Source of the DNA: Bryopsis sp. KO-2023 | Lineage: Eukaryota > Chlorophyta > Ulvophyceae > Bryopsidales > Bryopsidaceae | DNA length: 64,000 nucleotides | Direction: 5' to 3' | Assembly: GCA_030272585.1 (NCBI GenBank) | Contig: BSYQ01000003.1 | Coordinates: 7,998,001 to 8,062,000 of the forward strand | Part shown: one piece after another, positions 1-38,672 of the stretch | Layout of the letters: every line of letters begins with the position of its first letter | Position numbering within the stretch: position 1 is the first letter of the stretch | Made by a program: the position numbers and the translations under genes | The notes under the pieces: model-generated | The model's input: the letters and a program-made list of their open reading frames with translations, nothing else | The model's database searches: none | What the model was told of the DNA's origin: nothing

Positions 1-1
1 G

Positions 2-1432: not shown

Positions 1433-1471
1433 ATTCCCAGAAACCCTCACGACCGAGTGAAGTGTGCTGAA

Positions 1472-3759: not shown

Positions 3760-4160
3760 TCGGAGTCCAGGTCGGCATCAGATCTGCGTCGCCGATTTCA
3801 TCGGAAACACCGACTTTACGCCTTTCCTACCGATCATGATCGGACGTCGCCGACTATTGCTCCGATCAAAATATGGCGCCGACTTTTTGGTCGGCCGACT
3901 ATGCCGATCCCAGCTTCGAAACCAGATCGGATCGGTGTCGGGATCGGATCTGCCGACCTTTATTCGGGTCGGGCGCCGATCCCGACTAGTCGGTCCGATT
4001 TTGACACCGACTTCCGATTATCGGCCCGACTTTTGAAGATTTCAGAGTATCGGAACAGGACCGACTTTTTTCAACTTTCCGAGAATAATGGATTCGTGAA
4101 AACCGGAATCCGATCCGATCCCGTACAGGTCTGTTTATGTGCGGCCGATATTTGCCGACT
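3760..4160. repeat. GATCGG/CCGATC-rich subterminal region of H1
   Basis: The hexamer CCGATC and close variants (CCGACT, TCGGCC, CCGATT) recur in both orientations across roughly 400 bp up to the terminal repeat. The same motif fills the arms of H2 (25360-25650, 25970-26400) and H3 (37560-38000, 38320-38660). In known hAT elements, subterminal short repeats bind the transposase; applying that role here is inference. Confidence 0.6.
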
Positions 4161-4171
4161 GTATCCCTAGT

Positions 4172-20065: not shown

Positions 20066-20285
20066 CATGGTATCTTACTATCGTAAGTTTATACCAGAGT
20101 TTGCTCGAATTGCAGGACCCTTGCATGATCTCATCAAAAAGAATCATGTGTGGACGTGGGGACCTCTGCAACGGGAAGCTTTCGGCAAACTCAAGGAAAA
20201 GATTACCCGCACACCGATCCTTCTCCTACCCGATTCGCTGCTCAAGTACACCGTAATAACGGACGCATCAGGGACTGCATATGGA

Positions 20286-20749
20286 CAGTGATAGGACTTT
20301 ACGGTTACGGTCACCGTAACCGTACCGTAACGCCGTAACCGGACCGTAACCGGAGTACAATTTTCGTCGGAAAATCGTACTTTTACGGCCGTAACCGTAG
20401 CTCCGTACCGCTCCGTACCGCTCCGTACCGGACCGTAATGACCGTAACGGCCGTACCAACCGTAAACCGTAGAAAGTGACCCCCGCGGGGTCCCGCGATT
20501 CCAAAGGAACCCAGGGGGATTCGAACCTGCGACCCTACAGACTGCAGCCTAACGCTTTAGCACTGAACCACACTACTTCACGATGATTTAGGGCCTGCCG
20601 TAGCTATACCGTACCTGTTCCGTACCGTAAAAACAGCATATTACTCCGGTTACGGTACGGAATTACGGCCGTAGTACGGTGACCGTAACCCGACCGTAAC
20701 CGGACCGGACCGGAGCCGGACCAAAAAATCGGCCCAAGTCCTATCTCTG
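20286..20749. mobile_element. hAT-like non-autonomous element H4 (464 bp) with a tRNA-like core
   Basis: It is flanked by the 8-bp target duplication CATATGGA (20278-20285 and 20750-20757). Terminal inverted repeats are CAGTGATAGGACTT at the left and AAGTCCTATCTCTG at the right (13 of 14 pairs). Both size and ends fit the hAT superfamily. The arms are arrays of CCGTAAC/GTTACGG and CGGACC motifs rather than GATCGG. The core holds one tRNA-like cassette on the minus strand (about 20510-20590) followed by a GC hairpin (about 20480-20496). It is inserted in the RNase H region of element A. There is no transposase, so it must be moved in trans. Confidence 0.8.
20510..20585 (-). other. tRNA-like cassette in H4 (Cys-GCA-like)
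   Basis: Read on the minus strand: an A-box-like GTGGTTCAGTGCTAAAGCG, a seven-base anticodon-like loop CTGCAGT (T33 then GCA, as in tRNA-Cys), and a B box in GCAGGTTCGAATCCC. About 25-45 bp upstream is GGTATAGC, a TATA-like element, and the leader contains AATCATCGTG, also found before the cassettes of H2 and H3. A hairpin (CCCCCGCGGGG on the plus strand) follows the 3' end. It is more likely a Pol III-derived (SINE-like) module than a working host tRNA. Confidence 0.55.
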
Positions 20750-20757
20750 CATATGGA

Positions 20758-22662
20758 GCAGTTTTGTGTCAGGACCATGGAAAGGGGCTACAGCCAATAG
20801 CTTACCTTTCAAGACGACTAAAACCAGCTGAGACACGATATTCCGCTTACGAGCGAGAGCTGGGGGCTATAGCATATGCGCTTAGCCAATGGCGACATTA
20901 TCTCGAAGGAGCGCCTGGGGAGGTTACGGTTATGACGGACCATCAGCCGTTAACCTACTTCATGACCCAAGCAACAATGTCGCGGACCCAAGCCCGATGG
21001 TGGAGGTCAGGGTTTTTTGATTCCATAGGTCCAACAATCGTCTATGTTCCTGGCAAAGCCAACGTTTTGGCGGATGCGTTATCCCGAAGCCTTCCTGATG
21101 CTAAGGATCAAATTCATGCTTTGTCGACCTGGGTGGTAGATGAAGCGGATGCATGGAAGACCGCTATTGCAGAAGATCAGAAACTGCAAGCGGAAGTCAA
21201 GAAAATCCAAGAGGGTAAACCCACGAAACTTTCTCTAGAGGATGGCTGGTTGTATTACCAAGCAACTCCCACCTCAGACAAAGTATTAGTGGTACCGAAT
21301 GGATACCGAGAAAAGGTGATGGGGGAATTCCATGATGTGCCGAGTGCCGGCCATGCAGGCGCGGCCCGCACCATGGATGTGCTGAAGCGATACTATTGGT
21401 GGAAAGGAGTTGGCAAGGATGTTCAAGCATATGTGCGGACATGTCCTGTCTGTCAGCGGACGAAAGCTGATACGACAAAGCAAAAAGGACTTTTGCAGCC
21501 ACTCCCAATTCCGTCAGCAAAGTGGGAACAGATTACCACTGACCTCGTGACTGATTTACCAAAGTCACATGGGTTTACCGCCATTGCGGTATTTGTTGAT
21601 CGGTTAACCAAGTACGTTCGCTTTGCACCGTGCACCAAGGAAATAACCGCCCCAGAATATGCGAAGTTGTTTGTGGACAAAATCTACAAACACTATGGCC
21701 TTCCCAAAGTGATCATCTCAGATCGTGACCCCAGATTCACAAGTTCCTTCTGGAGGTCGATGTTTTCACTGTTGGGAACCCAACTCCGAATGAGCACCGC
21801 CTATCATCCACAAACGGATGGGCAGTCTGAAGTAACAATTCGGGTGTTGGAGGATTTCTTGCGGCCTTTTGTGGAACGGTACCCAGATCGTTGGGTAGAG
21901 TTTTTGGCGACAGCAGAATTCGCTGCCAATAACTCCCGCAATGTATCCACAGGCTATGCCCCAGCGCATTTGTTGTATGGGCAGCATATGGGCCAGATTA
22001 CTGTGCATAGGAAGTTGACGGCAAAAGAGGAGTCCGAAATGGCAACCGAAATGGTCAAGAGGATGGACGAACAACTGCAGCAGGCAAAGCAGCAGTATGC
22101 AACCGCACAAGAGCGGATGTGTGTCCAGGCCAACAAAAAGCGACGAGAAGTGACGTTTAAAACGGGGGATGAAGTATTGGTGAAGAGTGCCTTCATACCA
22201 TTGCACTCCCTACAAAAGATCCCACCTAAACTTCGTCGACGTTTTGTCGGACCATTCGTTGTGGACAAGGTCATATCCACAGTGGCCTACCGTCTCAAAC
22301 TTCCACCCCATTGGACTATACATGCCACCTTCCATGTTTCCAAGCTGAAGGCATACAACCGCTTGTCGGAAGATGATAAGCGGGAGGTGGAACTTCCCGA
22401 AGGGGAATTGGTGGATGGCACCATCGAATACGAGGTGGAGCGTATTCTGCGGGACCGAGGAGCCTCCAACCGTAAGGAGTACTTGGTTCTGTGGAAGGGC
22501 TTTGATTTGATGGAAGCCACCTGGGAGCCAGAAGCCCACCTGGCCAATGCCAGCGACCTTTTGGCTGAGTACTTGAAGAACCGCACGCGCTTGCCGACTA
22601 AAGAAGAAGTCCGATCAGAACGGGCAAAGAGACGGACAAGGCGGCGGGGGTTAGCTCTCTAG
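20758..22662 (+). CDS. Pol of element A, right part: RNase H, integrase, chromodomain
   Basis: RNase H features (YSAYERELGAIAYALSQWRHY, MTDHQPLTYF, VPGKANVLADALSR) precede an integrase with a zinc-binding motif ending CPVCQRTKAD, DLVTDLPKS, ISDRDPRFTSSFW and YHPQTDGQSE. A chromodomain (YEVERILRDRGASNRKEYLV, LWKGFDLMEATWEPE) closes the frame. In chromoviruses this domain steers integration to chromatin marks. It is contiguous with the RT-RNase H fragment at 20072-20277 except for H4. Confidence 0.85.
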   Translation, partial: AVLCQDHGKGLQPIAYLSRRLKPAETRYSAYERELGAIAYALSQWRHYLEGAPGEVTVMTDHQPLTYFMTQATMSRTQARWWRSGFFDSIGPTIVYVPGKANVLADALSRSLPDAKDQIHALSTWVVDEADAWKTAIAEDQKLQAEVKKIQEGKPTKLSLEDGWLYYQATPTSDKVLVVPNGYREKVMGEFHDVPSAGHAGAARTMDVLKRYYWWKGVGKDVQAYVRTCPVCQRTKADTTKQKGLLQPLPIPSAKWEQITTDLVTDLPKSHGFTAIAVFVDRLTKYVRFAPCTKEITAPEYAKLFVDKIYKHYGLPKVIISDRDPRFTSSFWRSMFSLLGTQLRMSTAYHPQTDGQSEVTIRVLEDFLRPFVERYPDRWVEFLATAEFAANNSRNVSTGYAPAHLLYGQHMGQITVHRKLTAKEESEMATEMVKRMDEQLQQAKQQYATAQERMCVQANKKRREVTFKTGDEVLVKSAFIPLHSLQKIPPKLRRRFVGPFVVDKVISTVAYRLKLPPHWTIHATFHVSKLKAYNRLSEDDKREVELPEGELVDGTIEYEVERILRDRGASNRKEYLVLWKGFDLMEATWEPEAHLANASDLLAEYLKNRTRLPTKEEVRSERAKRRTRRRGLAL

Positions 22663-22991
22663 ATGACACAGATTGATGTGGGGATGGGAACGATGGTGAG
22701 AGGATGGTATCAGTTCACCCACAATCAAATACATCTGGAGGAGCAAGCTAATCAGTACACAGTCAAGGGGTTGAGGGTAATTACAAAGCGGGCTAGAATC
22801 TGACTGAGGCGACGCTCAATAGAGGAGGTCAGCCATCGGTGACAAGTGGGTGACTCTACCACTTGTATATATACCCACTTCTTCAACCCTCCGCACCATT
22901 TTTCACTTTCGAGCAACCCAGTAAACGGAGCCGAGTTCAGCAAAGAGCGAAGTGTGCGTGTGTGTGTTTGCGGAGAGACCGTCCAGCAGCT

Positions 22992-24755
22992 ATGTCTTCC
23001 AAAGGCAACCGTGAAAGCAAAGATGAACAAATCACGCGTTTGCGGATGGAACGAGACAAATATGGAAAGGAATTAGCGGAAGCTGTGGAAGTAAGCAACA
23101 AGGCTTTGACGGCAAACACAGCATTGCTCCAGCAATTGACGGAAGTAAACAAACTCGCTCAAGAAGGAGTAGGCCATCGAGATGAACTGGCCGACAAACT
23201 TGCCGAACAAGAAGCACTGATGAGGGAAGCGGCTCAAAAACATGCGGAAGAGCGGGCTAAAGAGGAGGCCGACTACCACCAGAAATTTCGGACATTCCAA
23301 CAAGCAATCAGTGATGCCAAAGTGAATGCACGGGGATTAGCTTCTGAGTTGAAGGAAGCCCGGACAACAATCAAAACGCTGGAAGAGGAAAACCAGGCTG
23401 TCCGACAAGAGAAAATCTGCATCACTTCGGAGTTGGGATCCGTGAAAAACAACCTCCAAACTGCGCTGAAGGATCAGTCCTTCTATATCAAAGAAAACAA
23501 GGAATTGCGGGAAGTGCAGACAAAACGCTTCCAAGCGCTGCAGCAGTTGGAGAAAGAGGTGGCGGCCCTCAAAGCGGAAAAAGCGGCGGACAAACGTGGT
23601 GAGCGCGTCGCGCTCGAGACCAAGATCATGATGACGGAGCTGCTAGCATCCAGAGCAGAGGCGGCCAGGCTTCGTCAAATCTTGGAAAAATTCCCACAAG
23701 ATTTGGCGGCCATGGCAACTGGAGTCGTCCAAGGGAAGCTCCACACTCTGTCCGATCAAATGTCGTTGTTGCATAAGGGGAAATTTCAAGATGTGGTAGA
23801 CATCCACAAGATAAAAGAAATCACCCTGACGCATACAAGCTTGCCGCCCGCGAGTGAACTGAAGCATGTCCGAGACTGGGATGGGAGACTCACAAGGGAG
23901 GCCACGAAGATTGCAAGAATGATGGGCCAACCACCATCGCAGCCGACAAACGAGGACGACAGCAGCGATGACGACAGTGATTCCTCGGAAGATGAACAAC
24001 ACCGAAAAGAAAAGGAAGCTGCGGAGGCAGCCAAGGCAGCGGCCGACATTCTGAAGGCCGACAAATTGAGGTCCGACAAAGCTAAGGCCGACAAGGCTAA
24101 GTCCGACAAAGCTGCAGCCGACAAGTTGAAATCCGACAAAGCTGCAGCCGACAAAGCAGCAGCCGCCAAAGCTAAGACGGACACGATCAAGCCCAAGCCC
24201 AAGCCAATCAAGACGACAACACCGACCCGCAAGAGAATGCGTCCATCAAAGATTGCAAAGGAGCTGGAGGAGACACTGCTCAAACGTCACAAGGCAAATG
24301 GTGATCCTCGGTTGTTGGGCCGCACATGTTATCATTGTGCAGGACGACAACTGCATGTAGGAATTCCTGCAGATTGTCAGTCCCACTTTGTGTGCCCCAA
24401 ACATTGGACCAGACACCAAGTGACGGAAAGAATGATCCAGCGATGGAAGGACGACAAGTCTGTGGTTCCGCTTAACATGACTGTGACGGAACTGCATCTC
24501 GGCAAGCGAATGCCGGACTTCCTTCCCCTTGCACCACCACCACCAGCCGACGCCATCGACAATTTGGTTGTTCCATGCCAAATCTGTAATATCCGCAAAT
24601 GTGGATTTCCGTCCGGCTCGAGCACAAAGGCTCTCCGGTCGACGATGACGACAATCCTTCATGAGATGTGGGATCCAGAGCAGGACATTGATTCCGACAT
24701 TGACTCTGATGTTGCTGGTGGCGGCGGTACTGTTGGACCAAGCCAAGCCGACTAG
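22992..24755 (+). CDS. Extra ORF downstream of integrase in element A: coiled-coil plus Cys-rich
   Basis: From the ATG at 22992 the frame codes ~587 residues. Residues ~10-300 are strongly coiled-coil (heptads rich in A, E, K, L; for example LADKLAEQEALMREAAQKHA). Next come an acidic patch (SSDDDSDSSEDE), lysine/alanine repeats (LKADKLRSDKAKADKAK), a basic PKPKPIKTTTPTRKRMRPSK segment, and a cysteine/histidine cluster (CYHCAGRQ..CQSHFVCPKHWTRH, then CQICNIRKCG) resembling plant 4CXXC-type zinc domains. It lies where retroelements may carry accessory genes. It has no signal peptide or membrane segment, so it is not an envelope. Its role is unknown. Confidence 0.55.
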   Translation: MSSKGNRESKDEQITRLRMERDKYGKELAEAVEVSNKALTANTALLQQLTEVNKLAQEGVGHRDELADKLAEQEALMREAAQKHAEERAKEEADYHQKFRTFQQAISDAKVNARGLASELKEARTTIKTLEEENQAVRQEKICITSELGSVKNNLQTALKDQSFYIKENKELREVQTKRFQALQQLEKEVAALKAEKAADKRGERVALETKIMMTELLASRAEAARLRQILEKFPQDLAAMATGVVQGKLHTLSDQMSLLHKGKFQDVVDIHKIKEITLTHTSLPPASELKHVRDWDGRLTREATKIARMMGQPPSQPTNEDDSSDDDSDSSEDEQHRKEKEAAEAAKAAADILKADKLRSDKAKADKAKSDKAAADKLKSDKAAADKAAAAKAKTDTIKPKPKPIKTTTPTRKRMRPSKIAKELEETLLKRHKANGDPRLLGRTCYHCAGRQLHVGIPADCQSHFVCPKHWTRHQVTERMIQRWKDDKSVVPLNMTVTELHLGKRMPDFLPLAPPPPADAIDNLVVPCQICNIRKCGFPSGSSTKALRSTMTTILHEMWDPEQDIDSDIDSDVAGGGGTVGPSQAD

Positions 24756-24901
24756 AGACTGACCAAGCGAGAGACAGTGGTTTCGGGAGTTGGTAGTGGG
24801 CTGAGTGTTAGTTGGACTTTTTGCTTTTATTCTTTTTCTGTTGATTGACTTTTGGGGTTTTCTTTTTCGTGTGTTCACGCACAAGGGTGAGGGCACCCTT
24901 T

Positions 24902-25140
24902 GGGGGGGGGGGGGGGAGTAGTTGATACGAACGTTTGAATTGTAGTACAGTCGTGGTACGGGTATTCGGGTTCTAGGGTGATAAGTTCAGAGAGAACTTG
25001 TAAAACTTAATTATCTCTGAGTGTCGAGTTTCACCCCTGTTCACTCGTTTCTCAAACTCAAGTGTGCACACAACCTCCCAGTGAAAGCCTAGCTAAACAG
25101 GGCCTAACACACAGGCAAACCAGTAGAGACTGGAATTTCG
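24902..25140 (+). other. Polypurine tract and presumed 3' LTR region of element A
   Basis: A run of 15 Gs followed by AG (24902-24918) is a typical polypurine tract. The next bases, TAGTTGATACGAACG, may start the 3' LTR. No second copy is in the window for comparison, so the LTR limits and the border with element E are unresolved. Confidence 0.35.
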
Positions 25141-25689
25141 ACTGATGAGTTGAATGAAGGTCCAGTGGCAGCTCTAAAACCACCTAAGAGTGAGGGAAAG
25201 TCCAAGAAAGAAGTGAGGATTAATCCACAAGCAACTGAGTTGAAATGTTGGTCTTCTGGAGAGGAATCTGATGGGATCCCTGAGAAGTTAAGACCACTTG
25301 GACAGCGACTGGTAAATGATGCAGACAGTTGCAGAATGGAGGCAAATATCATACTAGGGATCCGATGCCGACATGTCGGTCATCGATCAAACCGATCTCC
25401 GATCAAGATCGGCACCTGCAATTTCCGATCAAACCGATCATCGATCAGATCGGTCCGATCAAACCGATCACCGATCAAAATCGGACCGATCACAAAAATC
25501 GGTCCGACTTTTCCGATCAAAATCGACCGATCACCCAATTATGCCTCGGAAACCAGATCGGATCGGGATCGGGATCGGCGTTTTCCGATCAGATCGGATC
25601 TGCCGATCACCCACCGATCCCGATCCGATCATGATCGGAAATCGGGTGACGCACAAAGTAACCCCCGCAGGGTCCCCAGAACCCAAGGG

Positions 25690-25775
25690 AACCGAGTGGG
25701 ATTCGAACACCATACCGCACGATACCGAGTCATCTACACTGAGCACTAAGCCAAGTGGACCACGATGATTTTGTG
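25690..25775 (-). other. tRNA-like cassette, left arm of H2 (Pro-CGG-like)
   Basis: On the minus strand: ATCATCGTGGTCCACTTGGC, an A-box-like TTGGCTTAGTGCTCAGTG, a short stem ATGA/TCGT around a seven-base loop CTCGGTA (T33, then CGG), and a B box GTGTTCGAATCCCACT. About 30 bp upstream is GGTATATC (in reverse) with CAACA, an arrangement like plant tRNA promoters (TATA-like plus CAA). A GC hairpin follows (25660-25676). Function is unproven. Confidence 0.5.
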
Positions 25776-25849
25776 GTTGTTGCAGTGATATACCCTAATT
25801 TCACAGAATTACAAACAGATTAAGGTATATCATCGCAACAGCCACAAAA

Positions 25850-25935
25850 TCATCGTGGTCCACTTGGCTTAGTGCTCAGTGTAGATGACTCGACATCGTG
25901 CGGTATGGTGTTCGAATTCCACTCGGTTCCCTTGG
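25850..25935 (+). other. tRNA-like cassette, right arm of H2
   Basis: This is the inverted partner of the left-arm cassette, with a few differences (loop CTCGACA instead of CTCGGTA; B box GTTCGAATTCC). Preceding it at 25825-25850 are GGTATATC and CAACAGCCAC. The two cassettes are divergent from a shared centre. The base differences mean the arms are diverging copies and not maintained as a perfect palindrome. Confidence 0.5.
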
Positions 25936-26412
25936 GTTCTGGGGATCCTGCGGGGGTTACTTTGTGCGTCACCCGATTTCCGATCATGATCGGATCGGGA
26001 TCGGTGGGTGATCGGCAGATCCGATCTGATCGGAAATTTACCAAATTCACCGACTTCGCGCCTTTCATACCGATCATGATCGGTTCTCTCCGATCATTGT
26101 ACCGATCAAAAAAAAAACGCCGACTTTGATCGGCCGACTATTCCGATCACAGCTCCGCGCCTTGATCGGATCGGGATCGGGATCGGCCGACGCCGTTCTT
26201 TGATCGGATCGGTCGCCGATCCCGATTAATCGGTCCGATCAAGACACCGATCACCGATGATCGGCACCGATCATGATCGGTAAAAAAAAAAAAAAAAAAA
26301 ACCGACTATTTTTGTATCACCCTATAATAGACATTAGTGAAAATCCGATCCCGATCCGACCCCGTTTAGACCTATTTTTAGCAGGCCGATCATTGCCTAT
26401 CATATCCCTAGT

Positions 26413-28002
26413 ATGGCAAATATGGCACAGAATCAAACTATGGATGGAGGAGCCCCATCCCTGAATGTGTTGACAAGAAGTCAAGTGGAACAAGTGAAGA
26501 TACCAAGAGAAAAGATCAGAACTGAGCAAGGAAAGGATGGATATTGCATCAACATCAAGGAACTACTAGAGAAACAGGATGCAAATGTCATCAAACAATT
26601 CAAGTTACAGGAAGGAATTCTCATGAAGAATACTGGGCAATTAGTCATCCCCACATCCATCAGACATGATGTCCTGAAAGAGGCACATGACTCAGCCGTG
26701 GCAGGCCACAAGGGCAGAGAAAGGACTCTTGATCTAATCAAGAGATATTTTTACTGGAGAAGATTGGATAAGGATGTGGCTGAATATTGTAGGACCTGTC
26801 CAAAATGTCAGAAATCTAAGGCAGAAGCGAAGCTTCCAGCTGGGAAGCTGCAGCCGCTCTCGATACCGGAACGACGCTGGGAGTCGGTCAGTCTCGACTT
26901 GATCGTGCAGCTTCCAGAAACGGAACGAGGACATTCGGCGATTGTGGTGTTCGTCGACCGGCTGAGCAAAATGACGCACTTCATACCGACGTCGACGAGC
27001 GCGTCTGCCAGGGATTTGGCGGACATATTCTTCAGAGAGGTGTGGCGACACCACGGGATGCCGACGAGTTTGGTGTCGGACCGCGACAGTCGATTCGTCT
27101 CAGCATTCTGGCGACGACTAATGGAGCTGAGTGGGACGTCTTTAAAGATGAGTTCGGCGTTCCACCCGCAGACCGACGGACAAACAGAAAGGATGAACCG
27201 CGTGCTTGAAGAGACGCTACGCTGTTATGTCGACGCACGGCGGCGCGACTGGGACGAAAGATTGCCGGCGGCAGAATTCGCGTATAACAATGGGAAACAT
27301 GCGTCGACGGGTCACACGCCGTTCTATTTGAACTCAGGGGAGCATCCGTTAGTGCCGATGGCGCTTATCGGAGGTCGACGCGTCGAGAGCGAGATTCGCG
27401 GCGTGCACGACATTCTGTCGAATATGAAGAATGACTTGGATTTGGCTAAACAACTGTGGAAACAAGCTCAGGAGAGGCAACGGAAGTATGCCGACAAGTC
27501 GCGACGTGAAGAAGAGTTCGCGGTTGGAGAACGAGTTTTGCTGACGACCCAGAATCTGTCATTTGCTGGCAGCGGGATTTCGCCGAAGCTCGGACCACGT
27601 TTCGTGGGACCGTTTGAGGTGGTCGCAAGAGTCGGAAAGGTTGCCTACAAGCTCAAGTTACCAGAGACGTGGAAAATTCACGACGTTTTCCATATTGTGA
27701 GATTGCGGAGATTTAAGGAGTCGTCAGACTTTCGACGACCTGAGCCAGAGCCGCCAGCACCGGTGATTAATGAAGAGGAACTCGAATACGAAGTCGAGAG
27801 GGTGCTGGATCACAAGGAAACGAAACGAGGACGGAAGGTGACGAGGAGATATCTGATTCGCTGGGTCGGCTATGGAATCGAACACGATTCCTGGGAGCCG
27901 TGGAAGCACTTGGTTAACGCGTCAGAAAGGGTGGCGGCATACCACCAACTGGTCGGACTCCAGCCTACGAAGGAAGAAGCTATCCTTCGGGGGCGGACGT
28001 GA
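26413..28002 (+). CDS. Integrase-chromodomain frame of element E
   Basis: The frame encodes an integrase zinc region (HDSAVAGHKGRERTLDLIKR..CRTCPKCQKSKAE), a catalytic core (SLDLIVQLPETERG, VSDRDSRFVSAFW, FHPQTDGQTERMN) and a C-terminal chromodomain (YEVERVLDHKETKRGRKVTR, IRWVGYGIEHDSWEPW). The start codon used here comes from the H2 terminal repeat, so the true N-terminus is upstream of the insertion. Base composition changes near 26830: CpG-poor before, CpG-dense after. Confidence 0.8.
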   Translation: MANMAQNQTMDGGAPSLNVLTRSQVEQVKIPREKIRTEQGKDGYCINIKELLEKQDANVIKQFKLQEGILMKNTGQLVIPTSIRHDVLKEAHDSAVAGHKGRERTLDLIKRYFYWRRLDKDVAEYCRTCPKCQKSKAEAKLPAGKLQPLSIPERRWESVSLDLIVQLPETERGHSAIVVFVDRLSKMTHFIPTSTSASARDLADIFFREVWRHHGMPTSLVSDRDSRFVSAFWRRLMELSGTSLKMSSAFHPQTDGQTERMNRVLEETLRCYVDARRRDWDERLPAAEFAYNNGKHASTGHTPFYLNSGEHPLVPMALIGGRRVESEIRGVHDILSNMKNDLDLAKQLWKQAQERQRKYADKSRREEEFAVGERVLLTTQNLSFAGSGISPKLGPRFVGPFEVVARVGKVAYKLKLPETWKIHDVFHIVRLRRFKESSDFRRPEPEPPAPVINEEELEYEVERVLDHKETKRGRKVTRRYLIRWVGYGIEHDSWEPWKHLVNASERVAAYHQLVGLQPTKEEAILRGRT

Positions 28003-28738
28003 TTGGTGGTGACGACTTTACGACGATCGAGGCGAAGGACGACCGGAATACCTACAGACTGACGGATCGCGAGGGGGCGGTTATCGGATTGCGTGATGGG
28101 TACTACCGCTAGGCGACCGCAGACTGCTTTGGGTAAGTCGCTGGAAACCGATCGAAGTCGAAGTGGAAGTTTTTAGAAAAGAGGATTCGAAAAGGAAGTG
28201 AAAAGAAAATCGAATTTGGGTAGCCTGGGAAGAGGCTAGTGTTTTGAAACCTGAATGACCTGATTGTTTATTGACTGGGGATTTCTTATTTTTACTGGAA
28301 CATTTGGGATTCTAGGGACTGGATTCCTGTGTTTTGATTTTCCTGTACTCCCTAGCACTTCCTGGACTTTGAATGTTTTGATTATGTTTCTGGAGGGGAG
28401 TTTGCTAGAGTGCTGGCTGTGAACTGTTTATTTGCTAGCTGGAGGTCAGTGGGACATTGATTGATTGACTGTTTAGTGAACTGACTTGGGCTGGATTCGA
28501 ACTCGAGTGGGCTAGAATGAAATGAGCTGAGCTTTGCCTTTTGGAATTGGCTCGCTTGAGAGAACGAGATAGTGGGACGTTTTTCTTTCTATTCTCGGAT
28601 TGATTCGGATTCGGACTTTGACGGACTTTGGACTGATTTTGGGATACGATCCTGAGTTGCTCTTTTGGATTTTGATAGATGTGACCTCACTCGCCTGACT
28701 GGAGTTTAGTCGGTGAGGTGGAGGGGATTGTAGTCGGG

Positions 28739-29205
28739 TGTAACCCCAAACCACGTCGCCTTAACCGATTTGGTCACCTCCACGGGAGGAGTGCTGCCAC
28801 AGAACTGGGACTGTGGCAGCAGTGCGGTAATGATTGTGGTGAAGGAGCAGTCCTGCCACAGCAGGGTTTTTTATCATAATTTGTCAAGGTTTCTAAGGGC
28901 AGTTGGGTAGTAGTTAGACCGTCCATTTGTTAGGTTCAATAAGGGTTAGTAAGGGTTATTATAGGTCAAAGAGGTAGCTAGGTTGTAGCTGAAGTCCATT
29001 GGGGCTGAAGCTACAGTTTTTGTATTTATAAAGCACCTCTGAACATATTCGATGTAAGCTCTCTTTTTGTTCGAGTGTTTGTCTTCCCCTATCCGACCTT
29101 TGCACACTACCACGTTCAACCACGAGCCCTTAGGCTCTTTTCCGTTCTCCCCACGATCAGTCCCTCCGCAGGGGTGACCCAATAGGGAGAGACGACGTCA
29201 TTTGT
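28739..29205 (+). repeat. 5' LTR of C, with primer-binding site after it
   Basis: It begins TGTAACCCC and ends GTCATTTGT. The following TGGTTTCGGAGCTTGGTT (29206-29223) is the initiator-Met-like primer site. A TATAAAG-type box (in TTTATAAAGC, near 29025) and a downstream T-rich stretch suggest the promoter. A 78-codon open frame on the minus strand repeats in all four LTRs of C and D and is not a gene. Confidence 0.85.
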
Positions 29206-29282
29206 TGGTTTCGGAGCTTGGTTACAGCGTTCTGGAGAACTTAAGTTTTCGTGGGAGACTACTCCAAAGACTACAAGGAAGA

Positions 29283-31244: not shown

Positions 31245-31306
31245 AAAGGCCCGTCGAAAGGGGACTTCGGACGGGCCTAACTAGATCCGAACAAGACAAA
31301 GAAGCC

Positions 31307-32809
31307 ATGGCAGAAGCACTAAAGGATATGGTGAGGAAACACCCGGAGGTATTCGGCCCGATCATACCTCCGCAGCAAACGAAAATGGAGGAACTAGCGG
31401 TATCGATGGAGGAGTGCGGCTATAGGAGAGAGCCGCCAAAATCGAACGTCCCCCAAAGGAGCATCCAAGACCAGAGATTGTCCGAGGAACAAGTGAAGGA
31501 GTGGTTAAAGGAACAGGTGGAACTCGGGTTCATAGAACCTTTGCAACGGAAGGACTATCCTCGCGGCGTATACTGGAATCCATCCCAGATAAGCTACTGC
31601 GAAAGGAGAAAGGGACCGAGGCCGATAATAGACTTCAGGAAGCTCAACACCTACGGCAGCGATGAGCACCAACCGGGCATTCAAGACGCAAGAAGACTGG
31701 TGCGATCTATCCCGGGCAAGTGGAAGTACTTCATCGTCGTGGACATAGCCAAGGCATACAATAAAGTGCCGATCAAGAAGGAGGTCAAGGCATTGACGGC
31801 GTTCAAAGTGGGGAGCAAAGAGTTTGTCAACAGCACCATTCCCCACGGCACTTCGTGGTCCGTGAGGGTATTCAACGACAAGATGTGCCGGGTATTCGAA
31901 GGTTTGGAGGAGTTCCGCCGCTACATGGATGATCTGCTCATTGGCGGCGCTACTGTGGAGGAGTGCTTCCAGAACTTCGGTAGAATAGTTTCTCGATGCA
32001 AGGAATACGGACTTCAAATCAACCAAAGGAAAATCGTCAGTGGAACTGAGGTGAAGTTTCTCGGATTCCACATTCAACAAGGAAAGTTTCATCCGGATAT
32101 ACCTTGGGAAAAAGTGAATGAAACTATTGCTAAACTGGTTGGAACGGCGGAACTGAGGGAAATTCAGCAGCTCCGCGGTCTGCTGAACGCCTTCAAGAAC
32201 TCGACTCTGGAATGGGACATGCAACATTTGCTATCCAGGATGGAAACCAATCAAGTACCGCCACAGGAGATAAAGGCGGAACTACAAAGTAAGGTATCGC
32301 AATGGCTGAGTCGTTGCTATTGCCGTGCATTTTCTGCCGGCGATACTCAACGGAAGTTGTTTGTTGATTGGGCTTCTATTGATACATCAGAGTATTTTGG
32401 ATATATTTTGACAGATGGATCGGGGAGGATTTTATACCTCGGACACGGAAAAATAAGTGGACAACATTCAAGTTTCTTGGGGGAAGTATTGGCAGCTATG
32501 AGCGCCGTTAAGGAAATACCCACAGATTTGTGGAGGGGAACTGCCGTTCAGATTTTTTCCGATAATTGGGCGGCAGTGAAAAGTCTATGGGCTCACCTCA
32601 CCCAAGAGGGGAAAGAAGCAGCACCTATTAAGGATTTGAGAACTTTGAGAGCGGTAACGGGAATCAAAGAAATTTTGCAGTTCAGCGGTTGTTCGAGTAT
32701 CTCCGTACAACACATAGATGGGAAAGCCAATTTTGTGGCTGATCATTTGAGTAGATGGTATGAAATTCGGAGTACTTCACAGTGGAAACGAAGTGGGTTA
32801 CAGCTGTAA
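31307..32809 (+). CDS. Reverse transcriptase and RNase H frame of element C
   Basis: About 500 residues. RT motifs: FRKLNTYGSDEHQPG, YFIVVDIAKAYNKVP (catalytic D), STIPHGTSWSVRVFN and the catalytic YMDD box, then LGFHIQQGKFHPD. The RNase H part has ILTDGSGRILYLG, SSFLGEVLAAMSAV and FSDNWAAVKSLW, and ends HIDGKANFVADHLSRWYEI, a tail reminiscent of DIRS-like and pararetroviral RNase H. The frame stops at the 3' LTR, without integrase or chromodomain. The RT is clearly different from those in A, B and E. Confidence 0.75.
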   Translation: MAEALKDMVRKHPEVFGPIIPPQQTKMEELAVSMEECGYRREPPKSNVPQRSIQDQRLSEEQVKEWLKEQVELGFIEPLQRKDYPRGVYWNPSQISYCERRKGPRPIIDFRKLNTYGSDEHQPGIQDARRLVRSIPGKWKYFIVVDIAKAYNKVPIKKEVKALTAFKVGSKEFVNSTIPHGTSWSVRVFNDKMCRVFEGLEEFRRYMDDLLIGGATVEECFQNFGRIVSRCKEYGLQINQRKIVSGTEVKFLGFHIQQGKFHPDIPWEKVNETIAKLVGTAELREIQQLRGLLNAFKNSTLEWDMQHLLSRMETNQVPPQEIKAELQSKVSQWLSRCYCRAFSAGDTQRKLFVDWASIDTSEYFGYILTDGSGRILYLGHGKISGQHSSFLGEVLAAMSAVKEIPTDLWRGTAVQIFSDNWAAVKSLWAHLTQEGKEAAPIKDLRTLRAVTGIKEILQFSGCSSISVQHIDGKANFVADHLSRWYEIRSTSQWKRSGLQL

Positions 32810-33271
32810 CCCCAAACCACGTCGCCTTAACCGATTTGGTCACCTCCACGGGAGGAGTGCTGCCACAGAACTGGGACTGTGGCAGCAGTGCGGTAATGAT
32901 TGTGGTGAAGGAGCAGTCCTGCCACAGCAGGGTTTTTTATCATAATTTGTCAAGGTTTCTAAGGGCAGTTGGGTAGTAGTTAGACCGTCCATTTGTTAGG
33001 TTCAATAAGGGTTAGTAAGGGTTATTATAGGTCAAAGAGGTAGCTAGGTTGTAGCTGAAGTCCATTGGGGCTGAAGCTACAGTTTTTGTATTTATAAAGC
33101 ACCTCTGAACATATTCGATGTAAGCTCTCTTTTTGTTCGAGTGTTTGTCTTCCCCTATCCGACCTTTGCACACTACCACGTTCAACCACGAGCCCTTAGG
33201 CTCTTTTCCGTTCTCCCCACGATCAGTCCCTCCGCAGGGGTGACCCAATAGGGAGAGACGACGTCATTTGT
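32805..33271 (+). repeat. 3' LTR of element C (467 bp)
   Basis: It reads as identical to 28739-29205. The internal border is GGTTACAGC|TGTAACC (32796-32811), and the outer side continues GGTTACA (33272-33278), then GTCGGG. A purine-rich stretch (about 32780-32796) precedes it and probably primes plus-strand synthesis. Confidence 0.9.
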
Positions 33272-33284
33272 GGTTACAGTCGGG

Positions 33285-33428
33285 TTACTGATTATCGGGC
33301 TAGTTAGAGCCACGTGATTGACTTTCTCGGTGTCCGACATAGAGTTAGGATAAAGGGCACTATTGGGATTGTATCGAGGACCATATTTTGACCTGTGTAA
33401 GACATTGACGCTCGATAGAGCTTGTGAC
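33285..33428. other. Spacer between elements C and D (144 bp)
   Basis: No gene is seen. It lies between GTCGGG (right target copy of C) and CCCGAC (left target copy of D), so the original locus had GTCGGG and its reverse complement about 150 bp apart. It may be a remainder of element E or host DNA. Confidence 0.5.
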
Positions 33429-33441
33429 CCCGACTGTAACC

Positions 33442-33908
33442 ACAAATGACGTCGTCTCTCCCTATTGGGTCACCCCTGCGGAGGGACTGATCGTGGGGAG
33501 AACGGAAAAGAGCCTAAGGGCTCGTGGTTGAGCGTGGTAGTGTGCAAAGGTCGGATAGGGGAAGACAAACACTCGAACAAAAAGAGAGCTTACATCGAAT
33601 ATGTTCAGAGGTGCTTTATAAATACAAAAACTGTAGCTTCAGCCCCAATGGACTTCAGCTACAACCTAGCTACCTCTTTGACCTATAATAACCCTTACTA
33701 ACCCTTATTGAACCTAACAAATGGACGGTCTAACTACTACCCAACTGCCCTTAGAAACCTTGACAAATTATTATAAAAAACCCTGCTGTGGCAGGACTGC
33801 TCCTTCACCACAATCATTACTGCACTGCTGCCACAGTCCCAGTTCTGTGGCAGCACTCCTCCCGTGGAGGTGACCAAATCGGTTAAGGCGACGTGGTTTG
33901 GGGTTACA
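33442..33908 (-). repeat. 3' LTR of element D
   Basis: It is in reverse orientation. The outer end GGTTACA appears on the plus strand as TGTAACC at 33435-33441. The inner border reads GGTTACAGCTGTAACC at about 33902-33917. It differs from the LTRs of C at only a few bases. Confidence 0.9.
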
Positions 33909-34908
33909 GCTGTAACCCACTTCGTTTCCACTGTGAAGTACTCCGAATTTCATACCATCTACTCAAATGATCAGCCACAAAATTGGCTTTCCCATCTATG
34001 TGTTGTACGGAGATACTCGAACAACCGCTGAACTGCAAAATTTCTTTGATTCCCGTTACCGCTCTCAAAGTTCTCAAATCCTTAATAGGTGCTGCTTCTT
34101 TCCCCTCTTGGGTGAGGTGAGCCCATAGACTTTTCACTGCCGCCCAATTATCGGAAAAAATCTGAACGGCAGTTCCCCTCCACAAATCTGTGGGTATTTC
34201 CTTAACGGCGCTCATAGCTGCCAATACTTCCCCCAAGAAACTTGAATGTTGTCCACTTATTTTTCCGTGTCCGAGGGTTGAATACCCTCACGGACCACGA
34301 AGTGCCGTGGGGAATGGTGCTGTTGACAAACTCTTTGCTCCCCACTTTGAACGCCGTCAATGCCTTGACCTCCTTCTTGATCGGCACTTTATTGTATGCC
34401 TTGGCTATGTCCACGACGATGAAGTACTTCCACTTGCCCGGGATAGATCGCACCAGTCTTCTTGCGTCTTGAATGCCCGGTTGGTGCTCATCGCTGCCGT
34501 AGGTGTTGAGCTTCCTGAAGTCTATTATCGGCCTCGGTCCCTTTCTCCTTTCGCAGTAGCTTATCTGGGATGGATTCCAGTATACGCCGCGAGGATAGTC
34601 CTTCCGTTGCAAAGGTTCTATGAACCCGAGTTCCACCTGTTCCTTTAACCACTCCTTCACTTGTTCCTCGGACAATCTCTGGTCTTGGATGCTCCTTTGG
34701 GGGACGTTCGACTTTGGCGGCTCTCTCCTATAGCCGCACTCCTCCATCGATACCGCTAGTTCCTCCATTTTCGTTTGCTGCGGAGGTATGATCGGGCCGA
34801 ATACCTCCGGGTGTTTCCTCACCATATCCTTTAGTGCTTCTGCCATGGCTTCTTTGTCTTGTTCGGATCTAGTTAGGCCCGTCCGAAGTCCCCTTTCGAC
34901 GGGCCTTT

Positions 34909-36870
34909 CTAGTTTGATACCTCCCGGTCATTGAACTTGACGGGTCCCTCGTGCACGAAAGTCGCAACCTTGTAGTTGCTCGGCAATTGGACGGGCAGGT
35001 CATTCCAATTGCTGATTTGGACGCGGAGGTACTGACCCTTATAATTCAATCCTGCATGAATGGCGATACTGCCATTCGGAACGACTGGACTGAGCTCGAT
35101 CTCCTTGGATGTCTTGATCGGTATCCAAATCGTGGAGAGTGAATGCGGCTTGAGCACCAAGTTTCTCCCCAGAGGTACAGAATAGCGATCCTTTGCAACG
35201 TTGACAATCTTGAGATGTCGTTTGGCAGAAGTCAGCTCCACACTCTCTTCGTCCGTTTTCTCCCTTTCTGGAAGCACTACTTCCTCAGGCAATCTTGTGA
35301 CCATGCATTGGAGAGTTTTTCCAGATCCTATGTGGATCTTCTTCCTTCGAACATCGATCACGGCGTTCAACGAGTTGAGAATAGGCATGCCGACCAACAG
35401 CTCGTATCCGGGCTCCTTCATCACGTAAAAATCCGCGGAAACCTTCTTCCCCTCGGTTCCTATCTTGATGGAAGAAATGCTGCCTTCAGTGTCCACAGTC
35501 CTGCCATCAGCCGTTCGAATTTTACTGGGTGCTCCTTCTTGCTTTGGCGACACCCCCAATCTTTTTGCCAGATCCGTGGAAATCACATTGACGGCTGCTC
35601 CCGTGTCGATAATAGCGAATTCTTCCACACTTTCTGCGGCTGTAGACACGAGAGACATCTTGGTTGTCAGGAGTCCTGCTGATTTTCCCACAGTCAAAAC
35701 TTCCTTGTAAGTTTTGGTCTTCAAAATCCCTCCGGTTTCAGGACTCTTGGAACTCCTTGTTTGCTTTGGTCCACTGGTTGGGTTCCCACGGCGGTACTGG
35801 GTTCTCTCGGACTTCTTCCATTTCCTCGTCGGCACTTTTGCCACAGGCACGGCAGAAATGGTCCCGACATAGTTTGTCTCGGGCTGATAGAGATCTTCTT
35901 CTTCCAATCCTTCAAACTCGTTGTTGTCTTCGAATTGGGGTTCATCGAATTGAACGGTTCTCGTAGGCATTCCACGATACGGCGTTCCTCCTCTTCTGAA
36001 TCCACCTCCGTTGTTCCTGAATCCGCTGTTGCCTCCGCTTCCGCCGCCGCCGCTCTTTGCCAACCAGCTCAAAAACCCTTTGAATCTTCGATCTCTCTTA
36101 CTCAATTGAGTGATGAAAAACTTGAGAGAGCCAAACGGTACCTCTTTCAGCTTTTGTTGCCAATCGGTCTGCGGAAGTTCTCCTTGTCTCACCGGCGATT
36201 CCTTTTCTGCAGGTGCTGTAGTCTCGCCTACCGCTCCAATGTCCATTGCGTCCCCTTGGAGTTTCGCTGTTGTATCTTCGAGGCGAAACACGTTGATGAT
36301 CCATTCCTTTGCGTTTGCGATAGCGTCTACATATGTGGCGGTCACCATTGCTGCCGTTCCGACTCTGCAATCCTTTGGAAGTAGTTTGAAGAAAATTTCT
36401 TTTATTTTCGCATCATCCACATCCTGTTCCACTGCCATTGCTTCTTGGCGAAACTGCTCGATCCACTGCAGCCACGTTTGCCCCTTTTTCTTGACACATT
36501 TGCGAAGGACTGCTTCCTTTTCTGAAGGACTCTCCAAGATAGCTCTTTCCGTTACGAGAAATCCTGCCACGTTCATCTTTAACGCATCAATATTTCCAGC
36601 CACTGCTGCTGGAGAAGCTGCGGGCCTCCCGTGTGATCCTGGAGGATACGCTGCGTCGAAGTCGGCCATCAGAACATTGTTAACTTCGTACAGTATTGCC
36701 AAAATATTCTCTCCGGGTCCTTCTGGGACATAGTGGTCCACCACTGATGCGCAGAACTGCTGATATGTCGCGTAGATCCTTGAGCGCTGAAACGCATACC
36801 GAAAATTTCTGGAAGTGATAGTCTCATATCGACATATCTTATCCAGAGATGGTGATGGTATCCCCGCCAT
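34909..36870 (-). CDS. Gag-protease frame of element D
   Basis: Same product as in C, beginning at the equivalent ATG (36870), with Gag-like helical domain, RGG-like region and retropepsin motif AIIDTGAAVNVIS. Only a handful of amino-acid differences from the C copy are visible. An RT remnant lies downstream at about 34846-34260 and an RNase H remnant at about 34236-33904. Confidence 0.75.
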   Translation of the reverse strand: MAGIPSPSLDKICRYETITSRNFRYAFQRSRIYATYQQFCASVVDHYVPEGPGENILAILYEVNNVLMADFDAAYPPGSHGRPAASPAAVAGNIDALKMNVAGFLVTERAILESPSEKEAVLRKCVKKKGQTWLQWIEQFRQEAMAVEQDVDDAKIKEIFFKLLPKDCRVGTAAMVTATYVDAIANAKEWIINVFRLEDTTAKLQGDAMDIGAVGETTAPAEKESPVRQGELPQTDWQQKLKEVPFGSLKFFITQLSKRDRRFKGFLSWLAKSGGGGSGGNSGFRNNGGGFRRGGTPYRGMPTRTVQFDEPQFEDNNEFEGLEEEDLYQPETNYVGTISAVPVAKVPTRKWKKSERTQYRRGNPTSGPKQTRSSKSPETGGILKTKTYKEVLTVGKSAGLLTTKMSLVSTAAESVEEFAIIDTGAAVNVISTDLAKRLGVSPKQEGAPSKIRTADGRTVDTEGSISSIKIGTEGKKVSADFYVMKEPGYELLVGMPILNSLNAVIDVRRKKIHIGSGKTLQCMVTRLPEEVVLPEREKTDEESVELTSAKRHLKIVNVAKDRYSVPLGRNLVLKPHSLSTIWIPIKTSKEIELSPVVPNGSIAIHAGLNYKGQYLRVQISNWNDLPVQLPSNYKVATFVHEGPVKFNDREVSN

Positions 36871-36947
36871 TCTTCCTTGTAGTCTTTGGAGTAGTCTCCC
36901 ACGAAAACTTAAGTTCTCCAGAACGCTGTAACCTGGCTCCGAAACCA

Positions 36948-37414
36948 ACAAATGACGTCGTCTCTCCCTATTGGGTCACCCCTGCGGAGGGACTGATCGT
37001 GGGGAGAACGGAAAAGAGCCTAAGGGCTCGTGGTTGAGCGTGGTAGTGTGCAAAGGTCGGATAGGGGAAGACAAACACTCGAACAAAAAGAGAGCTTACA
37101 TCGAATATGTTCAGAGGTGCTTTATAAATACAAAAACTGTAGCTTCAGCCCCAATGGACTTCAGCTACAACCTAGCTACCTCTTTGACCTATAATAACCC
37201 TTACTAACCCTTATTGAACCTAACAAATGGACGGTCTAACTACTACCCAACTGCCCTTAGAAACCTTGACAAATTATTATAAAAAACCCTGCTGTGGCAG
37301 GACTGCTCCTTCACCACAATCATTACTGCACTGCTGCCACAGTCCCAGTTCTGTGGCAGCACTCCTCCCGTGGAGGTGACCAAATCGGTTAAGGCGACGT
37401 GGTTTGGGGTTACA
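36948..37414 (-). repeat. 5' LTR of element D, with primer-binding site
   Basis: On the minus strand it runs from TGTAACCCC to GTCATTTGT and is followed by TGGTTTCGGAGCCAGGTT (36947 down to 36930). This primer site matches the one in B exactly and differs by two bases from that of C. Confidence 0.85.
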
Positions 37415-37469
37415 CCCGACCACCTCTCTCTCTCACGACCACTCCCTCTCATCAACAACGTGACCCTCT

Positions 37470-37554
37470 ACACGGGGGGTCAAAGTGTAAGAAGTTCAAC
37501 TTGTGTATTGCCCTTCCAGTTCTACATCTTTGTTTATGTTTTTCCAGCTGTAAT
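37470..37554 (-). repeat. Dispersed repeat R, part left of H3
   Basis: On the minus strand this matches 61014-61090 with few differences (for example the shared AACTGGAAGGGCAATACACA and AACTTCTTACACTTTGACCC). It ends in the H3 target copy GCTGTAAT (37547-37554). The other half of the same repeat is right of H3 (38673-38790). Confidence 0.8.
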
Positions 37555-38672
37555 CATACTATGGACGTGATCGGAAATGATCGGCCGTCCATTTTCGATG
37601 TCAGGACAGGTCGTTTCACTGATCTGACCTGACACGATCTCGTTCCACATGATTCTAAAAATGATCGGGTTTTTTTTTTTTTACCGATCATGATCGATGA
37701 TCGTGATCGTGATCGGCCGATTAAAACCTGATCGATGATCGTGGTCGGCCGATCAAAGCTTGATCGTAATCGGGATCGGGCTTCCGATTATCGATCTAAT
37801 CGGTTGCTCCGATCACGATCAAGCGTTGCGACATGCAGACGCCTAATCGGCCGATCAAGATCGGTGAAACGCCGATTAATCGGATGTTGATCCGATCACC
37901 TCCAACCATGATCGGCCATGGATCAATTGATCGGAATTTAATTTAAGATTCCGATCATGATCGGTCCCATGATCAATTGATCGGTCAATTGATCGGTCTC
38001 ACGAAAATGCCCACAAGTCACCACCCGAAGGTGTTTCTGGAGGTGTAAGGACTCCAACCTAGGACCTCACTGACTGGAATCAAGCAAATCAACGCTTGGA
38101 CCACTCTGAGCCACGATTAGAGTGTGCTCCGTGTCATTATATACCTGATCACTCAGTGCGACAAACTGAGGTATATAATAACACGGATGACCTAGTGATC
38201 GTGGCACAGAGTGGTCCAAGCGTTGATTTGCTTGATTCCAGTCAGTGAGGTCCTAGGTTCGAGTCCTTACACCTCCAAAAACACCTTCGGGTGGTGACTT
38301 GTGGGCATTTTCGTGAGACCGATCAATTGACCGATCAATTGATCATGGGACCGATCATGATCGGAATCAATTGATCATGATACCGATCTGATCGGCAGCT
38401 CCGATCCCGATCACGATCTCGATCAAGCGTCGCACCCTGTCGGCACCTGATCGGCAGTTTTTGATCGGCCGATCACGATCAGGCCGATCAAAAACTGCCG
38501 ATCAGGTTGGGCGACCGATCAGATCGATGATCGGCCGATCGTGATCGATGATCGGCCGATCGTGATCGATGATCGGCCGATCGTGATCGATGATCGGCCG
38601 ATCGTGATCGATGATCGGCCCTGCCAGACCTGATCGGCGACCGATCAGATCGGTGATCGGATCCATAGTATG
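37555..38672. mobile_element. hAT-like foldback element H3 (1118 bp) with two tRNA-like cassettes
   Basis: Target duplication GCTGTAAT (37547-37554 and 38673-38680); terminal inverted repeats CATACTATGGA..TCCATAGTATG, one base different from H2 in the first eleven. The arms are packed with GATCGG/CCGATC, including a near-perfect 27-bp-period array near 38520-38620. The centre (about 38160) is an inverted repeat with outward-facing tRNA-like cassettes (minus about 38040-38118; plus about 38198-38275). It is inserted in dispersed repeat R, whose uninterrupted paralogue is at 60.9-61.1 kb. There is no transposase. Confidence 0.85.
38198..38275 (+). other. tRNA-like cassette, right arm of H3 (Ser-like, class II shape)
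   Basis: It shows an A-box-like GTGGCACAGAGTGGTCCAAG, a degenerate anticodon region with the loop TTGCTTG (GCT would be Ser), a long variable-arm-like stretch, and a B box AGGTTCGAGTCC. Upstream is GGTATATAATAACAC, a TATA-like element, and the leader has TGATCGTGG. A hairpin CACCTTCGGGTGGTGACTT follows. The left-arm copy (about 38040-38118, minus) has a B box reading GGTTGGAGTCC. Confidence 0.5.

What the first reader, a model, noticed from the sequence alone, without database searches (positions are those of the whole stretch)
20286..38672. hAT-like elements with tRNA-like, Pol III-style cassettes at their core
H2, H3 and H4 share one plan: 8-bp target duplication, CA..TG terminal repeats, arrays of a short motif and a tRNA-like cassette. 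Each cassette has a GGTATA-type TATA element upstream, an ATCGTG leader, A box, B box (GTTCGA) and a GC hairpin starting a few bases after the tRNA-like 3' end. The tRNA identity differs: Cys-GCA-like in H4, Pro-CGG-like in H2, Ser-like in H3. H2 and H3 hold two cassettes facing outward from a palindromic centre. The shared leader and hairpin suggest one module fitted with different tRNA-like bodies. Seen: motifs, repeats and target copies. Inferred: Pol III transcription, and exchange of tRNA-like bodies.
Basis: partly seen in the sequence, partly recalled or inferred. Interest (0 to 1): 0.85.

Follow-up and report, generated by a model that had tools for sequence, protein, structure and literature searches.

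The report
hAT transposons carrying tRNA-like promoter cassettes
Small non-coding hAT transposons of three different families in this genome carry related, tRNA-like sequences that look like RNA polymerase III promoters at their core, absent from the parts of their full-length relatives that were examined; transposons may share a helper module, although no transcription has been measured.

Summary
H2 (25350-26415), H3 (37555-38672) and H4 (20286-20749) are non-autonomous hAT elements with perfect 8-bp target duplications. Their ends match transposase-bearing hATs elsewhere in the genome (94%, 91%, 99%), from three transposase groups. Each carries a tRNA-like cassette: GGTATA, ATCGTG leader, A box, B box, hairpin. 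H2 and H3 hold two, facing outward from a palindrome. The architecture occurs 380 times genome-wide, 3 in a reversed control. One-family profiles find the other families' cassettes (E 3e-18 to 7e-4); H2 and H4 also match host tRNA genes weakly, H3 does not. Boxes vary less than spacer plus middle in H2 and H3, but the H2 TATA and the H3 leader do not stand out. Of 41 exact 3' modules on contig C1, 31 sit at H4 tips and 9 in H2-type cassettes, so free SINE-like copies look rare. H5, a fourth family, repeats the plan; homology was not shown. Not supported: the Cys, Pro and Ser identities, a short RNA ending at the hairpin in H2 or H4, an invariant ATCGTG. Body exchange is plausible, unproven. 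Most likely: tRNA-derived Pol III-type promoters captured by hAT derivatives and kept for a cis effect.

The parts
20278..20285 (.). H4 left target-site duplication CATATGGA (right copy 20750-20757)
20286..20749 (-). H4: 464-bp non-autonomous hAT element, tips CAGTGATAGGAC / GTCCTATCTCTG; it seems to interrupt Gypsy-like coding sequence (read by eye, not searched)
   Evidence: right 106 bp 99% to hAT-bearing L062 and L067
20473..20610 (-). H4 cassette: TATA 20604-20610, ATCGTG 20579-20584, box A 20559-20573, box B 20517-20527, hairpin part 20473-20512
25350..26415 (+). H2: 1066-bp non-autonomous hAT element, tips CATACTAGGGAT, duplication GCAAATAT at 25342-25349 and 26416-26423
   Evidence: left 250 bp 94% to hAT-bearing L066
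25582..26036 (.). H2 palindromic centre, arms 25582-25799 and 25819-26036 (96%), 19 nt between
25655..25794 (-). H2 left cassette: TATA 25788-25794, ATCGTGG 25760-25766, box A 25742-25754, box B 25698-25708, hairpin part 25655-25693
25824..25963 (+). H2 right cassette: TATA 25824-25830, ATCGTGG 25852-25858, box A 25864-25876, box B 25910-25920, hairpin part 25925-25963
37555..38672 (+). H3: 1118-bp non-autonomous hAT element, tips CATACTATGGA, duplication GCTGTAAT at 37547-37554 and 38673-38680
   Evidence: right arm 91% to hAT-bearing L063
37947..38368 (.). H3 palindromic centre, arms 37947-38146 and 38169-38368 (95%), 22 nt between
38015..38145 (-). H3 left cassette: TATA 38137-38145, ATCGTGG 38111-38117, box A 38094-38107, altered box B (GTTGGA) 38049-38059, hairpin part 38015-38035
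38170..38300 (+). H3 right cassette: TATA 38170-38178, ATCGTGG 38198-38204, box A 38208-38221, box B 38256-38266, hairpin part 38280-38300, TTTT at 38308
1..4174 (+). 3' part of H1, a complete 6732-bp hAT (C3:7995443-8002174, duplication CCGATTAG) whose 774-aa open frame holds the hAT dimerisation domain; no cassette match

Best explanation
H2, H3 and H4 are internally deleted derivatives of three different hAT transposons that carry, where the full-length relatives carry a transposase gene, a tRNA-derived, Pol III-type promoter cassette, single in H4 and doubled as a palindrome in H2 and H3. The transposases of the full-length relatives presumably move them by their shared ends. The cassette most likely acts in cis: TFIIIC and TFIIIB bound at box A, box B and the TATA element would keep the element's core free of nucleosomes and resistant to silencing, and may drive outward transcripts into the arms. 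Shown: hAT identity of the ends, homology of the cassette across three families, conserved A and B boxes around a variable middle, scarcity of free copies on the contig checked. Inferred: factor binding, transcription, the benefit to the element, and capture from a tRNA-like source.
For: Ends shared with hAT-bearing elements. Profiles built from one family find the others: H4 finds H2 at 3e-18 and H3 at 2e-7, H3 finds H4 at 2e-6 and H2 at 1e-4, H2 finds H4 at 7e-18 and H3 at 7e-4; best reversed-sequence control 0.21; a host tRNA profile finds H4 at 5e-4, H2 finds a tRNA-Lys gene at 8e-4 and H4 a tRNA-Ile gene at 5e-3. Without pattern-selected loci the boxes vary about 2.7-2.9 times less than spacer plus middle: H2 0.037 against 0.109 (p 0.004), H3 0.043 against 0.115 (p 0.004). 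380 architectures against 3; 451 exact 3' modules against 0. In the window, TATA to leader is 26-28 nt, leader to box A 10-12, box A to box B 46-48, start to start. H5, met by chance in a flank, repeats the plan.
Against: No expression or binding data. The H3 profile finds no tRNA gene at E up to 10, and the tRNA profile reaches H2 and H3 only at E 1.1 and 3.0. The profiles include pattern-selected members, whose motifs are intact by choice. H3 boxes are not better conserved than its arms; the H2 TATA (0.086) is about as variable as the H2 middle (0.091), and at the looser thinning the H3 leader (0.139) varies more than the H3 middle (0.072); the H4 sample without pattern-selected loci was too small (3 sequences at the looser cut, p 0.26). 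The part after box B is as conserved as the boxes, so selection may lie elsewhere. H2 and H4 lack a T4 near the hairpin. The complete hAT H1 and the examined parts of L062-L067 have no cassette match.
Confidence: 0.5

Rival explanations
1. Passenger: a tRNA-derived SINE once inserted into non-autonomous hAT elements and has been copied along with them, without any benefit.
For: A printed precedent: Heliconius Metulj SINE subfamilies inside a non-autonomous Mariner and inside an unidentified repeat with a Helitron-like part (PMC4016481, passages read). A tRNA-like head followed by a non-tRNA hairpin part.
Against: Box conservation above spacer plus middle in H2 and H3; three hAT groups carry it. 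On C1, 31 of 41 exact modules sit 221-223 nt from an H4 tip, 9 coincide with H2-type cassettes and 1 is unassigned; 25 of 25 H4-type cassettes listed on C1 and on C2 up to 2.44 Mb have a tip 139-140 nt away. An extinct SINE would look the same.
Confidence: 0.27
2. The cassette makes a functional RNA, either a hairpin-ended small RNA or longer arm transcripts that feed or escape RNA silencing.
For: H3 has TTTT about 110 nt after the leader start (46 of 70 H3-type cassettes have their first T4 at 100-119 nt); T5 runs lie in the arms of the window H2 at 268 and 457 nt. The B-box/hairpin part is among the best conserved stretches and pairs in about 88% of cells.
Against: No two-sided compensatory change among 27 distinct modules, which a pattern had selected; no T4 after the hairpin in the window H2 or H4; no RNA data.
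Confidence: 0.12
3. The conserved parts are DNA-level features for transposition (palindrome, hairpin, transposase sites) and the tRNA resemblance is incidental.
For: The palindrome recurs in H2, H3 and H5; the part after box B is as conserved as the boxes; H3 shows no profile match to tRNA genes.
Against: H4 has one cassette and no palindromic centre, only a 44-nt inverted match of its arrays at 73%; profile matches between H2 or H4 and host tRNA genes; the complete element H1 has no cassette match.
Confidence: 0.06
4. Captured tRNA genes that are still, or were recently, working tRNAs of different identity.
For: Box A, box B and tRNA-like spacing; weak profile matches to tRNA-Lys and tRNA-Ile. 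With ARAGORN loosened to 95%, 5 of 9 calls overlap cassettes or their 3' part: tRNA-Tyr in L072 and tRNA-Thr in L023 and L024. A tmRNA match, same clan as tRNA, overlaps the H3-type cassettes of L037 at 17.6 bits, cut-off 47.
Against: RF00005 is not listed for any cassette at E up to 10 in window 19800-39200 or in 15 loci, while two host tRNAs score 77 and 71 bits (a weaker tRNA match under the tmRNA one in L037 would be hidden). Default ARAGORN calls none in cassettes, and the loosened calls do not agree with Cys, Pro or Ser.
Confidence: 0.05

Closest known systems
Composite elements: Metulj SINE in Heliconius (PMC4016481, passages read)
   Same: A tRNA-like Pol III head lies inside a non-autonomous Mariner, and in another subfamily inside an unidentified repeat with a Helitron-like part, and is multiplied with them.
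   Different: There the SINE family also exists as a SINE; here homologous cassettes sit in three hAT families, doubled in a palindrome in two, with few or no free copies on the contig checked.
Non-autonomous hAT elements (MITE-like)
   Same: 8-bp duplications, short inverted tips, ends shared with full-length hATs, many similar copies.
   Different: They carry a Pol III-type cassette and motif arrays in place of the transposase gene.
tRNA-derived SINEs (general knowledge)
   Same: Box A and box B, followed by a non-tRNA 3' part.
   Different: No free copy was confirmed here; ends and duplications are those of hAT.
tDNA insulators and extra TFIIIC sites (general knowledge)
   Same: The proposed mode of action: TFIIIC-bound DNA opens or bounds chromatin.
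   Different: Those are host loci; binding here is untested.

Membership tests
hAT superfamily (non-autonomous) | 8-bp target-site duplication | tested here: met
   45 of 50 H2/H3-type loci with a tip pair (60 examined) perfect; window H4 perfect; 11 of 12 fetched H4-type copies with enough flank perfect, L072 7 of 8 bases
hAT superfamily (non-autonomous) | short terminal inverted repeats beginning CA and ending TG | tested here: met
hAT superfamily (non-autonomous) | ends shared with elements that encode a hAT transposase | tested here: met
   H2-L066 94%, H3-L063 91%, H4-L062/L067 99%; PF05699 in five open frames, those of L062-L066
hAT superfamily (non-autonomous) | mobilised by that transposase | not testable with these tools
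   needs an excision assay
tRNA-derived SINE | box A and box B of tRNA type | tested here: met
   motifs in the window; H2 and H4 matched with host tRNAs at 8e-4 and 5e-4, H3 not
tRNA-derived SINE | independent retroposed copies | tested here: not met
   of 41 exact modules on C1, 31 sit at H4 tips, 9 coincide with H2-type cassettes (element ends seen only for those on L009 and L026), 1 unassigned; other contigs not checked this way
tRNA gene | cloverleaf recognised by the tRNA model | tested here: not met
Pol III transcription unit | TATA, box A and box B in order with tRNA-like spacing | tested here: met
Pol III transcription unit | T4 or longer terminator just after the unit | tested here: inconclusive
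   H3 has TTTT; H2 and H4 do not. One of three host tRNA genes viewed (L093) also has no T4 in the 39 nt seen after it
Pol III transcription unit | transcript and factor binding | not testable with these tools
   no expression data held

The most novel reading that the evidence does not exclude
A Pol III-type promoter cassette acts as a shared accessory module that passes between unrelated DNA transposon families, keeps its A and B boxes and hairpin, exchanges its tRNA-like body, and gives its carriers an advantage in chromatin; H5 and an LTR retrotransposon family would be further carriers.
Probability: 0.3. Interest if true: 0.82.

Novelty: new variant of a known kind. Interest (0 to 1): 0.62.

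Why it matters
My ten searches of an open-access library found nothing on hAT elements with Pol III-type cassettes; the nearest is a SINE carried inside a Mariner and a repeat with a Helitron-like part. If the cassette works in cis, hundreds of copies in one genome, many nearly identical, make it testable whether Pol III factors protect or help DNA transposons, and whether such cassettes spread as modules.

Tried and rejected
KDZ transposases as the source of the 8-bp duplications: no PF18758 match in the genome (the control genomes did not ring either, so absence is not shown). A transposase gene inside one interrupted H2 copy: the 9.2-kb insert L061 is a Gypsy-type LTR element with 415-bp repeats. 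A named tRNA identity for each cassette: rejected; ARAGORN loosened to 85% gave 308 calls, which I take for background. The microRNA-family names are below their gathering scores and many lie on palindromes; I treat them as chance. Covariation of the hairpin: none two-sided. Homogenisation of the two palindrome arms: own-arm similarity exceeds any other copy in three H2-type elements (L074, L025, L073) of 31 and ties in L070; the 14 of 35 H3-type elements shown do not exceed; undecided. A first 3'-module pattern had the wrong gap and gave 2 hits; corrected. A pattern search for host tRNAs with an H4-like box A did not complete, so the source of the bodies was not tested. Literature: ten searches listed no paper that I recognised as on hAT elements with tRNA-like cassettes; I judged by listings, the library lacks most subscription journals, and only PMC4016481 was opened, in passages.

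Rows dropped before counts: in the conservation test, sequences were thinned to less than 94% mutual identity, then L068-L076 were removed because a pattern holding the tested motifs had selected most of them. In one search, 3 of 15 chosen cassettes were dropped for lack of an exact leader or B box. Cassette extraction kept only alignments from reference position 25 or before to 140 or beyond.
Full report
What is there. H2, H3 and H4 are bounded elements with perfect 8-bp target duplications and inverted tips. Own-genome searches, each scoring only its best 40 candidates, found many copies: for H2, 21 further near-full-length copies at 97-99% and diverged ones at 80-88%; for H3, mostly 89-96%; for H4, 98-100% in all 40 scored. 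Duplications are perfect in 45 of 50 H2/H3-type loci with a tip pair, of 60 examined.

Why hAT. The genome holds at least 150 matches to the hAT dimerisation domain PF05699. Five stretches around such matches were fetched first, a sixth later. L063-L066 carry a CATACTA tip, GATCGG motifs behind it and open frames of 774-839 aa; L062 and L067 carry the H4 tip, GTTACGG-type arrays and a 350-aa frame. PF05699 was confirmed in the five frames of L062-L066. H2's left 250 bp are 94% identical to L066, H3's right arm 91% to L063, H4's right 106 bp 99% to L062 and L067. The H2-type and H3-type transposases are 52-53% identical; the H4-type frame aligns with the others mostly at 28-45% over parts only. 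H1, which runs into the window, is a complete 6732-bp hAT with duplication CCGATTAG. No cassette match was found in H1 or in L062-L067. L062 and L067 are interrupted or incomplete and L063, L064 and L066 were seen without their 3' ends, so only H1 was checked whole.

The cassette. In the window, TATA to leader is 26-28 nt, leader to box A 10-12, box A to box B 46-48, start to start, followed by a hairpin part. The loose architecture occurs 380 times, 3 in the control; of the 100 places listed, 99 are of the H2, H3 or H4 type by eye. The 3' module occurs 451 times, 0 in the control. Profiles built from one family find each of the others with E between 3e-18 and 7e-4, best reversed control 0.21. 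Against host tRNA genes the result is mixed: H2 8e-4, H4 5e-3, a tRNA-Lys/Ile profile finds H4 at 5e-4 but H2 and H3 only at 1.1 and 3.0, and the H3 profile finds none. A combined profile reached a tRNA-Lys gene at 1.5e-7, without a reversed control. The sequence searched is the window plus fetched loci, about 350 kb of my own choosing.

Selection. On sequences not chosen by pattern, the boxes vary less than spacer plus middle in H2 (10 sequences, p 0.004) and H3 (15 sequences, p 0.004); against the arms only H2 differs (p 0.004; H3 p 0.29). At a looser thinning H3 weakens to p 0.03 (40 sequences). Not all boxes contribute: the H2 TATA is about as variable as the middle, and at the looser thinning the H3 leader varies more than the middle. 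The part after box B is as conserved as the boxes. Related copies are not independent, so these p values are indicative only.

Mosaic or divergence. An H2 and an H4-type cassette share 89% in the 54 nt from box B onward (0 of 500 shuffles) but 57% in the body (125 of 500 shuffles reach it). Within H4, copies 89% alike in the 3' part are 75% or 92% alike in the body. This fits exchange of bodies or conversion of the 3' part. But the bodies have the same length (51 nt, 52 in H3) and align through in profiles, which fits fast divergence.

Free copies. On C1, 31 of 41 exact 3' modules lie 221-223 nt from an H4 tip, 9 coincide with H2-type cassettes (element ends seen for those on L009 and L026 only), 1 is unassigned. 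All 25 H4-type cassettes listed on C1 and on C2 up to 2.44 Mb have a tip 139-140 nt away. Six H4 tips without an exact cassette match, fetched as a test, are all H4-type elements with a cassette whose leader reads ACCGTG.

A fourth family. The combined profile met H5 in a flank (E 0.27-0.61): L037:148-1452, 1305 bp, tips CAGACCTGGG 10 of 10, duplication GTCAGCAC, its own array motif, a long palindrome and two outward tRNA-like cassettes. Ends were seen in this copy only; L011 and L058 are cut by the locus ends and gave no such pair. A genome search gave 71 matches from 40 scored candidates, most at 98-100% and many in outward pairs. Homology to the other cassettes is not shown (E about 1 or worse in one-family profiles).

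Terminators and fold. In the window, T4 follows the hairpin in H3 but not in H2 or H4. The tRNA model lists no cassette but does hit two host tRNAs; a tmRNA match of the same clan, far below its cut-off, overlaps the H3-type cassettes of L037. The hairpin pairs well, without compensatory change.

Host. Probably a green-lineage alga: among the best 120 listed matches of the Gypsy reverse transcriptase the named eukaryotes are plants, Closterium and Chara, besides an 89% match in a bacterial MAG that I take for contamination, and a plant SRP RNA scores 99.7 bits, just under its cut-off of 105. This is inference.

Reading. Tested steps are hAT identity, cassette homology in three families, box conservation and scarcity of free copies on C1. 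Pol III factor binding, transcription, benefit and origin are inferred. A passenger SINE as with Metulj (PMC4016481) is the main rival.

Noticed in passing
L037:148-1452 (also L011, L058, part of L052; a relative at L055:2828-3735): H5, a fourth hAT-like family with a long palindrome and two outward tRNA-like cassettes.
   Followed up: partly
L003:3965-4069, minus strand: A weak tRNA-like match with an ACCGTGG start (E 8e-4); its copies (40 matches, 81-100%) include 11 same-strand pairs 6.4-7.1 kb apart, which suggests the long terminal repeat of a retrotransposon.
   Followed up: partly
window 28730-31876 and 34277-37423: Inverted arms of 3147 nt reported as 100% complementary, 2400 nt apart, with further nested repeats.
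   Followed up: no
window 1-4174 with L065: Complete hAT H1, 6732 bp, perfect duplication CCGATTAG.
   Followed up: yes
G000:C5 about 2.78-3.14 Mb and 3.67-3.77 Mb: Most of the 63 scored tRNA matches lie on C5, many in repeats about 3.0-3.5 kb apart; one copy read is tRNA-Ile(TAT).
   Followed up: partly
L023:79-362: Plant-type SRP RNA match, 99.7 bits, just under its gathering score of 105.
   Followed up: no
window 17820-18727: Tandem array of a 90-bp unit, about 10 copies, 98% alike.
   Followed up: no
L061; G000:C9:4614188-4621969: A Gypsy-type element lies near the palindrome centre of one H2 copy; a second H2 copy shows a similar 7.8-kb gap that was not fetched.
   Followed up: partly
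L008, L026, L043, L056: H4-type elements nested in or beside H2- and H3-type copies, all four with perfect duplications.
   Followed up: partly
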